DNA of 64,000 nucleotides from Spirochaeta africana DSM 8902 (GTDB taxonomy: Bacteria; Spirochaetota; Spirochaetia; DSM-27196; DSM-8902). The stretch covers positions 1,736,001-1,800,000 of the forward strand of contig NC_017098.1 in the NCBI RefSeq assembly GCF_000242595.2. The letters run 5' to 3'. Below the pieces are notes generated by a model, which was given only the letters and a program-made list of their open reading frames with translations, was not told the DNA's origin and made no database searches. Shown here piece after piece: positions 42,456 to 44,836 of this stretch. Numbering within the stretch: position 1 is the stretch's first letter; every line of letters starts with the position of its first letter. A program made the position numbers and the translations under genes.

Positions 42456-43199
42456 CTATTGGTCAAAATCAAAATCATCCGGTATCTCGAGGTTGGAAGA
42501 CACACTCTGAACATCGTCATGATCATCCAGGGCATCCAGCATCTTCAGCACCTTGCGGGTTCCGTCTGCATCAAGTTCAATGTTGGTATCTGCAACCAGT
42601 GCTACCTCTGCGTTCTCGTGCACGAAACCGGCAGCTTCCATGGCCTCGACCACCGCATCAAAGTCCTCCGGGGCGGTCTCCACCTCGATCGTGTCTCCCG
42701 ATACCGCGACATCGGCAGCACCCGCCTCCAGTGCCGGTTCCAGGATCTGATCCTCGGTATATTTTCCGGTACTGTAGGCCAGTATCCCCTTTTTGTTAAA
42801 GAGGTACGACACACATCCGCTTTCCCCCAGGTTGCCGCCGGCCTTGTTGAAGATACTGCGGACATCGGCAGCGGTGCGGTTCTTGTTGTCGGTAAGGCAG
42901 TCTACCAGGATAGCAACACCGCCGGGACCGTACCCCTCGTACATCATCTCGGTGTAGTCTACACCCTCAAGATCGCCAGTCCCCTTCTTGATAGCCCGTT
43001 CTACATTGTCTTTGGGCATATTCTCCGCGCGAGCCTTGTTGATGGCGGTACGCAGACGGGGATTGGAATCGGGATCGCCGCCGCCCAGTCGAGCTGCAAC
43101 GGTTATCTCTTTGATCAGTTTGGAAAAAATCTTGCCTCGTTTGGCATCCAGGGCACCTTTTTTATGGCGAATGGTTGCCCACTTGCTATGGCCGGACAT
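42456..43199 (-). CDS. yebC: YebC/PmpR-family protein
   Basis: A 247-residue member of the YebC/TACO1 family, recently linked to relief of ribosome stalling on proline stretches and earlier described as a transcription regulator. The N-terminus [20 protein letters not shown], the [20 protein letters not shown] segment and [19 protein letters not shown] are diagnostic. ATG 43199 is preceded by AAGGAGA. First gene of the resolvasome operon after the signal peptidase pair. Confidence 0.96.
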
Positions 43200-43235: not shown

Positions 43236-43859
43236 TCATGGTGCGATTCCGGGTGTCAATCTTTCGATCCGATCCGGCGGCCAGATACGCCAGCGTACCG
43301 TTCCCCGCACCCGCTCCAGATCTACCGGGCCGTAATGTCGGGAGTCAAGATAGCCGCCACCGCTGCTGACAGCAACGGAATCATCCGGCACGGTGAACCC
43401 GGCCCAGTCTGGTGCAAGCGGAAACCCCGAGGGCGGCTCCGCATGGCCATCGTCAGGAAAGTCCCGGCTGGCCACATGCTGTCCGGCAACTGCCGCAACC
43501 CGACGCAGCACCGGCAGGTGACGGTACGCTGGATACGGGGTGCGTCCGAACAGACTGGCAGCAGGACGCTGCAGCAGGACACGAAGTCGGGAGGAAATGC
43601 GGTGCGGCTCGGTATATGGCGGAAACAGGAGGATAATCTGATCCGACACCACCTCCTGGTTGACCAGCGAAACCAGCACCACATCACCCCGCTGCAGCTG
43701 TGGGCTCAAGGCATTATCCGGCACGGTATAGGTGCGCAGTACAAAAAAATGGGTAATTGTAAACCCGAGCAGCAGCAGCAGGAGCGGTCGTACCGTCCGA
43801 GCAGCCAGCTGTCTCCAGCGATTGCGACGGTACGGATTGTAGCGAAAACCACCACGCAC
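43236..43859 (-). CDS. Signal peptidase I-like pseudoenzyme
   Basis: A 207-residue S26-family homologue with one N-terminal membrane helix (VRPLLLLLLGFTITHFFVL, about 23-41). Box B reads YTVPDNALSPQLQRGDVV: aligned with PSASMRPTLIEGD of the neighbour, the catalytic Ser is Ala. In box D, LRRVAAVAG replaces the neighbour's IKRAIGIGE, so the general-base Lys is Arg. Box E keeps YLDSRHYGPV. A normal peptidase would be inactive with either change, so this is likely a non-catalytic partner or regulator (inference). Its GTG overlaps the stop of the intact lepB gene by one base (TAGTG), so the two are translationally coupled. Confidence 0.85.
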   Translation of the reverse strand: MRGGFRYNPYRRNRWRQLAARTVRPLLLLLLGFTITHFFVLRTYTVPDNALSPQLQRGDVVLVSLVNQEVVSDQIILLFPPYTEPHRISSRLRVLLQRPAASLFGRTPYPAYRHLPVLRRVAAVAGQHVASRDFPDDGHAEPPSGFPLAPDWAGFTVPDDSVAVSSGGGYLDSRHYGPVDLERVRGTVRWRIWPPDRIERLTPGIAP

Positions 43860-44836
43860 TACTGGATTCCTCCCCAGCGCCGCGCCGGCCAGTAGATAAA
43901 CAGGGCTCGACCGAGGATGTCGTCCTCGTACACAAATCCGTAGTTGCGTCCGTCATGGGAGTTGTCGCGATTGTCCCCAAGGGTGAGCATGCCCCCGGGG
44001 GGCAGATACCAGCCCAGATCTGTTCTCTTGCGCTGTGCGCTGATACGCGGATCAGCGGGATTCATGGCGGACCGCTCCTCGATACGCAACTGATCCCGGG
44101 TATTGATGTCCGGCGGGTACTGCTGGGCGAAACTGGTTGCGAAGCTGCGATCCGCCTCGCTCAGCGGAATCCCGGCCTCGGAGCGGGAGATAATTGCCGC
44201 AAACCGGCGCATGTCGGCATAGGCCTCCGGCGGTACCAGGCGCTGAATCGGGCTGGCATCGGCAGACCCGAAGATCAGCTCCTCATCGGCATGCCATCTG
44301 GCTGCACCAGCCGGACGGATATAGATATCCCCATCGACCGATCGAATCCGATCCTCGCCGATACCAATCGCCCGCTTGATCAGCAGACTTGCTCTGGGGT
44401 TGCCCATCTCATCGCGATCTATATCCACCATTGACAGGGTCAGCATATGCAGAATCCGATGCACCAGACTGAACATGGTGCCCCGGGGGTGCTGGGTCGG
44501 ATTCTCCAGGATAACGACCTCCCCGCGCACGGGAGAAAAGAAACCTGGCAGCTTGAAAAAGCCAGGCAGCAGCTGCGGTCCATAGATCATCTTGTTAACA
44601 AATATCCGGTCACCCTCGATCAGGGTTGGCCGCATCGAGGCCGATGGTATCTGGTATGCCTGTACCAGATACTGATTGATCACCAGGACAATCAGAGCCG
44701 CCTGCAAAAAGGCCTCGATCCAGTCTCGCACCGGATGCTTGCGGGCATGCCGATCCTTGATACGCTGCTTTCGCTGCTTGCGTAGGGTAAGAAGATACTC
44801 GGTTTTCTGAACCAGGAGTTGCGCTGCATTTTTCAT
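43859..44836 (-). CDS. lepB: Signal peptidase I
   Basis: Cleaves signal peptides of exported proteins at the outer face of the inner membrane. One membrane helix (AFLQAALIVLVINQYLVQAY, about 45-64) precedes the Ser-Lys dyad: QIPSASMRPTLIEGDRIFV (Ser) and LLIKRAIGIGEDRI (Lys), then TLGDNRDNSHDGRNYGFV. The 325-residue length includes an insert between boxes D and E (about 190-275, rich in Arg/Ala/Glu), reminiscent of the larger E. coli enzyme. It is divergent from the PEGA/FGE gene and coupled to the pseudoenzyme downstream. Confidence 0.94.
   Translation of the reverse strand: MKNAAQLLVQKTEYLLTLRKQRKQRIKDRHARKHPVRDWIEAFLQAALIVLVINQYLVQAYQIPSASMRPTLIEGDRIFVNKMIYGPQLLPGFFKLPGFFSPVRGEVVILENPTQHPRGTMFSLVHRILHMLTLSMVDIDRDEMGNPRASLLIKRAIGIGEDRIRSVDGDIYIRPAGAARWHADEELIFGSADASPIQRLVPPEAYADMRRFAAIISRSEAGIPLSEADRSFATSFAQQYPPDINTRDQLRIEERSAMNPADPRISAQRKRTDLGWYLPPGGMLTLGDNRDNSHDGRNYGFVYEDDILGRALFIYWPARRWGGIQ

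What the first reader, a model, noticed from the sequence alone, without database searches (positions are those of the whole stretch)
43236..43859. Signal peptidase paralogue lacking both catalytic residues
Alignment with the adjacent intact enzyme puts Ala at the nucleophilic Ser (VPDNALSPQL versus IPSASMRPTL) and Arg at the Lys (LRRVAAVAG versus IKRAIGIGE), while box E and the membrane anchor are kept. The gene is coupled to lepB by a one-base overlap. Retention of the fold with loss of both residues suggests a regulatory or substrate-presenting subunit, analogous in idea to pseudoproteases.
Basis: partly seen in the sequence, partly recalled or inferred. Interest (0 to 1): 0.72.

Follow-up and report, generated by a model that had tools for sequence, protein, structure and literature searches.

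The report
Dead signal peptidase conserved in spirochaetes
Next to its normal signal peptidase this spirochaete carries a look-alike that has lost both catalytic residues, and the same gene sits across most spirochaetes, including the Lyme and syphilis groups, where the catalytic pair has been lost again and again while the protein stays under selection, so its job is probably not cutting but helping the export machinery.

Summary
Observation confirmed. The gene at 43236-43859 (-) encodes a 207-aa membrane-anchored S26 protein (called P here), overlapping lepB by 1 base and with its own ribosome site. It has Ala for the nucleophilic Ser, Arg for the general-base Lys, and no lysine at all, so no Ser-Lys mechanism is possible. 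One detail is wrong: box E is only half kept (DSR...G yes; GDNR and the Lys-supporting Ser no).

The loss is neither local nor recent. I collected 142 orthologues from Spirochaetota; within the window's class only 16 of 117 keep Ser+Lys. The Ala/Arg pair is not conserved: the dyad is lost in different ways (Glu/Ser in Borrelia-like genomes, Ser/Arg in Treponema-like ones, Ala/Lys, Gly/Ala), with at least 12 changes of dyad state on a tree. LepB keeps both residues in every case (85/85, 86/86). Dyad-less copies are under purifying selection (dN/dS mostly 0.06-0.35).

Best reading: an ancient pseudo-signal peptidase whose selected function does not need catalysis, most likely substrate binding or presentation near LepB/Sec. 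Known analogues: S. pyogenes SipA, S. aureus SpsA. Partnership with LepB is inferred. No structure could be predicted.

The parts
43236..43859 (-). P: pseudo-signal peptidase, 207 aa, one N-terminal membrane anchor and an S26 domain; Ser->Ala, Lys->Arg, GDNR half of box E lost, DSR half kept, zero lysine
43857..43875 (-). Junction: lepB stop TAG (43861-43859) overlaps the P start GTG (43859-43857) by one base; GGGGAGG (43875-43869) 9 bases upstream of the start
43859..44836 (-). LepB, intact type I signal peptidase, 325 aa (IPSASM, LIKRAIG, GDNRDNSHDGR)
   Evidence: catalytic residues invariant in relatives
42456..43199 (-). YebC/TACO1-type gene downstream of P; the same neighbour follows P in several other families, a HemW type in others (gene names by eye from sequence)

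Best explanation
P is a spirochaete-wide paralogue of signal peptidase I whose selected function does not depend on proteolysis. It sits in the inner membrane by one N-terminal helix with the S26 domain on the periplasmic side (inferred from homology and the Arg-rich N-terminus). It keeps the S26 scaffold and, by homology, the peptide-binding cleft, and most likely binds a signal peptide or precursor close to the Sec translocon and LepB, presenting it to LepB or delaying its cleavage. Shown: homology, loss of the dyad, conserved tandem, recurrent dyad loss, purifying selection without the dyad. Inferred: cleft binding, partnership with LepB, identity of substrates.
For: 142 orthologues collected; in the class 16/117 keep Ser+Lys, 38 lack both, 45 lack only Lys, 18 lack only Ser. 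Structural positions stay nearly fixed (Asp280 140/142, Arg282 134/142, Arg146 130/142) while Ser90 is 76/142 and Lys145 58/142. LepB is 85/85 Ser and 86/86 Lys. Fewest changes on the class tree with these columns removed: Ser 16, Lys 10, dyad 12. dN/dS of dyad-less P in close pairs is about 0.06-0.35 (one Borrelia-like pair 0.46), similar to dyad-intact P at 0.11-0.26. P is kept in the most reduced genomes: 13/13 Borrelia-like species (0.9-1.8 Mb; Glu/Asp + Ser/Ala) and a 1.1-Mb Treponema-like genome (Ser + Arg). In most tandem loci P starts within about 60 bases of the lepB stop. All 43 members of the test alignment match PF10502 and TIGR02227 at E <= 0.001, and the profile matches solved SPases and SipA. 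A solved precedent, SipA, has lost the same two residues, keeps the cleft and is essential for pilus assembly (PMC4049620).
Against: P evolves faster than LepB at protein level in nearly all pairs, and the window's copy has a very long branch (1.9-2.1). In the Treponema-like family and in f2, f13 and f25 P is not next to lepB. Families f11/f16, f17 and f28 have LepB without a detected P, so LepB does not need P there. Some copies keep Ser+Lys and may be active.
Confidence: 0.58

Rival explanations
1. SipA-like independent chaperone: P binds one dedicated class of exported proteins (for example a surface or periplasmic assembly) and acts apart from LepB; the tandem merely reflects origin by duplication.
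For: SipA precedent with crystal structure and assembly phenotype. P is unlinked from lepB in the Treponema-like family and others but still conserved. It is absent from families that keep LepB.
Against: The short-gap tandem persists across most families of the class; no conserved client gene beside P was seen (neighbours are YebC or HemW types).
Confidence: 0.27
2. Relaxed, slowly decaying spare copy of the enzyme with no selected role now.
For: Fast evolution, long branch of the window copy, deletions in box E, Ser and Lys lost independently; S. aureus SpsA is reported as inactive and dispensable (PMC12445088).
Against: dN/dS well under 1 in dyad-less pairs, open frames in nearly all genomes listed, retention in reduced Borrelia-like and Treponema-like genomes, near-invariant DSR/PGD/RG motifs. 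Selection could not be tested in the window's own lineage, a one-genome family.
Confidence: 0.1
3. P is still a peptidase by another mechanism (Thr or displaced Ser nucleophile, Arg or another base).
For: Many orthologues have Ser+Arg or Thr+Lys.
Against: Ala, Gly, Val, Glu, Gln or Ile at the nucleophile and Ala, Ser, Leu or Phe at the base in others; no conserved substitute residue seen; the window protein has no lysine or cysteine; a Ser two places on (ALSP) is not conserved.
Confidence: 0.05

Closest known systems
Streptococcus pyogenes SipA (PDB 4n31, 4k8w)
   Same: S26/SPase I fold with the Ser-Lys dyad replaced; a positive role without catalysis; some homologues keep the dyad (PMC4049620)
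   Different: Asp/Gly instead of Ala/Arg; encoded in a pilus gene cluster, not beside lepB; P is present in most spirochaete families as a chromosomal core-like gene
Staphylococcus aureus SpsA (partner SpsB)
   Same: Inactive SPase I homologue lacking two catalytic residues, in a genome with an essential active enzyme (PMC12445088); gene adjacency is from my memory
   Different: Reported dispensable; sequence grouping with P was not tested
Type I signal peptidase LepB / SPase I (S26A)
   Same: Sequence family, N-terminal anchor, scaffold parts of boxes B, C, D and E
   Different: Dyad, Gly272 and Ser278 equivalents missing in the window protein; much shorter than the neighbouring LepB
Eukaryotic signal peptidase complex (non-catalytic subunits)
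   Same: Idea of a non-catalytic partner beside a catalytic subunit
   Different: Those accessory subunits are not inactive copies of the S26 enzyme; analogy only, from general knowledge

Membership tests
Peptidase S26 fold family (PF10502) | Profile match above the curated cut-off | tested here: met
   35.7 bits vs 22.9; all 43 alignment members match at E <= 0.001
Active signal peptidase I (S26A) | Nucleophilic Ser in box B | tested here: not met
   Ala in the window protein
Active signal peptidase I (S26A) | General-base Lys in box D | tested here: not met
   Arg at the site; zero lysine in the protein
Active signal peptidase I (S26A) | Box E with Gly272, Ser278, Asp280, Arg282 | tested here: not met
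   Only Asp280/Arg282 kept in the window copy
Signal peptidase I equivalog TIGR02227 | Score above the curated cut-off | tested here: not met
   39.9 vs 47 bits
Sec11-type (S26B) peptidase | His in place of Lys | tested here: not met
   Arg; no His in this column in any of 142 orthologues
Inactive SPase I homologues (SipA/SpsA kind) | S26 protein without the dyad, retained under selection beside an active enzyme | tested here: met
   (selection shown in relatives, not in the single-genome lineage of the window)
Inactive SPase I homologues (SipA/SpsA kind) | Peptide-binding cleft retained in structure | not testable with these tools
   structure prediction failed and was switched off
LepB accessory subunit | Physical interaction with LepB | not testable with these tools
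   only gene order available

The most novel reading that the evidence does not exclude
Most spirochaetes, including Borrelia and Treponema pallidum, run a two-part signal peptidase in which an S26 pseudoenzyme, derived from the protease itself, selects or times the cleavage of particular precursors: a bacterial counterpart of a multi-subunit signal peptidase complex.
Probability: 0.3. Interest if true: 0.85.

Novelty: new variant of a known kind. Interest (0 to 1): 0.6.

Why it matters
Proteins of this family look like signal peptidase I to profile searches (all 43 tested match TIGR02227), so many are likely named as enzymes although most lack the dyad. Work on spirochaete protein export would then count too many active enzymes. 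A widely kept, catalysis-free S26 protein, present even in 0.9-1.1 Mb genomes, would mean that spirochaete signal-peptide processing has a regulatory or client-sorting layer, which is directly testable in Borrelia.

Tried and rejected
Recent decay in this genome only: rejected, most relatives across 24 families of the class lack the dyad too. Conserved Ala/Arg pair: rejected. Linked loss of Ser with Lys, Gly272 or Ser278: no association in independent pairs (few informative pairs). Tie to flagella: f16 and f11 lack both P and FlhA, but f17 and f28 lack P and keep FlhA, and f11/f16 are probably one event, so no conclusion. LepB columns that change where P is absent: only three weak columns, confounded by kinship. 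Plasmid homologues: none. Structure prediction of P and LepB: jobs interrupted, then tool off. Literature: no paper in the held library describes a dyad-less signal peptidase in spirochaetes; subscription journals are mostly not covered.

Full report
What is there. The ORF at 43236-43859 (-) encodes a 207-residue protein with an Arg-rich N-terminus, one hydrophobic segment and an S26 domain. Its GTG start shares one base with the stop of lepB (43859-44836, -) and has GGGGAGG 9 bases upstream. Its codon-position G+C (0.72/0.50/0.62) is like that of its neighbours. LepB is intact (IPSASM, LIKRAIG, GDNRDNSHDGR). In P the nucleophile column is Ala and the base column Arg. It has no lysine in 207 residues (the other window genes checked have 2-18), so a Ser-Lys dyad anywhere in the chain is impossible. 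Box E is half lost: SSGGGYLDSRHYG keeps DSR...G but not GDNR or the Ser that supports the lysine. The same genome has a third S26 protein of 164 aa with Ser and Lys in place.

Relatives. A search of 60 related genomes with PF10502 showed a second S26 gene just after lepB in most of them. I fetched the loci, read the ORFs and aligned both proteins. A profile of 43 P proteins (A1) was then run over 247 genomes of the phylum and over the Borrelia-like and f16 families.

Dyad states. Of 142 orthologues 31 have Ser+Lys; within the window's class 16 of 117 (24 families) do. Orthology of the copies outside the class is less sure. The losses differ: Borrelia-like Glu/Asp + Ser/Ala in 13 of 13 species; Treponema-like Ser + Arg in 33 of 43, with Thr, Ala, Asn, Asp or Gly at the Ser site in the rest; f7 mostly Ala + Lys; f3 Gly + Ala/Gly; f15 Val/Ile + Leu/Arg; f8 Ser or Ala + Arg/Phe; f38 mostly Thr + Lys. 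LepB has Ser in 85 of 85 and Lys in 86 of 86. On a tree of 79 class members built without these columns the fewest changes are 16 (Ser), 10 (Lys) and 12 (dyad). The tree is a quick one with many weak forks, so the numbers are approximate, but 8 independent Ser differences rest on well supported branches. Direction (loss vs gain) is not given by the counts; loss is the sensible reading because the family derives from SPase I.

Selection. In close pairs that lack the dyad, dN/dS is 0.06-0.07 (f3), 0.19-0.24 (f4), 0.09-0.11 (f7), 0.14 (f8, Ser+Arg), 0.35 (f15, very close pair), 0.09-0.32 in most Borrelia-like pairs with one at 0.46, and 0.11-0.22 (f24 with Thr+Arg); dyad-intact pairs give 0.11-0.26; LepB 0.03-0.22. 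These are Nei-Gojobori estimates; several dS values are near saturation. So P is constrained as a protein, less than LepB, and not clearly less so when the dyad is gone. Positions that hold the S26 scaffold (Arg146, PGD, Asp280, Arg282) are nearly fixed. The window's own lineage has no second genome, so selection there is inferred.

Function. Constraint on scaffold but not on catalysis, plus the precedent of SipA (dyad replaced, peptide cleft kept, essential for pilus polymerisation; PMC4049620), points to binding. Tandem order with lepB points to LepB or Sec as the place of work. Against a strict LepB subunit: P is unlinked in f24, f2 and f13, and missing in f11/f16, f17 and f28. Hence 0.58 for a non-catalytic role in or near signal-peptide processing, 0.27 for a dedicated chaperone apart from LepB, 0.1 for slow decay, 0.05 for hidden catalysis.

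Known or new. Inactive SPase I homologues are known (SipA; SpsA, PMC12445088). I found no description of this spirochaete family in the held papers. BB0031 is listed there only as LepB (PMC3757035). What appears new is a phylum-wide, recurrently dyad-less, selected orthologue beside an invariant LepB.

Noticed in passing
whole genome G000:C1:903815-904270 (L001 1474-1968, -): Third S26 protein of the genome, 164 aa, with Ser (GSSMEP) and Lys (ILKQVVG) in place; similar small third copies occur in Borrelia-like genomes.
   Followed up: partly
families f11 and f16 (L252-L271, G048, G053): These families lack P and also lack FlhA (no flagellar export gene found); f17 and f28 lack P but keep FlhA.
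   Followed up: partly
L088, L090, L092, L095, L201, L207, L211-L213: In several families (f2, f13, f31, f44) LepB is about 590-700 aa with a large insertion between the boxes; open frames of 580-634 aa in Treponema-like genomes suggest the same.
   Followed up: no
window 42456-43199 and relatives: The gene after P is in many families either a YebC type or a HemW type, two alternating neighbours; reason unknown.
   Followed up: no
N-terminus of P, window 43800-43859 (-): A short aromatic Y..Y motif in the cytoplasmic tail recurs in P (96 of 142 within the first 45 residues, against 25 of 79 LepBs); possible contact site.
   Followed up: no
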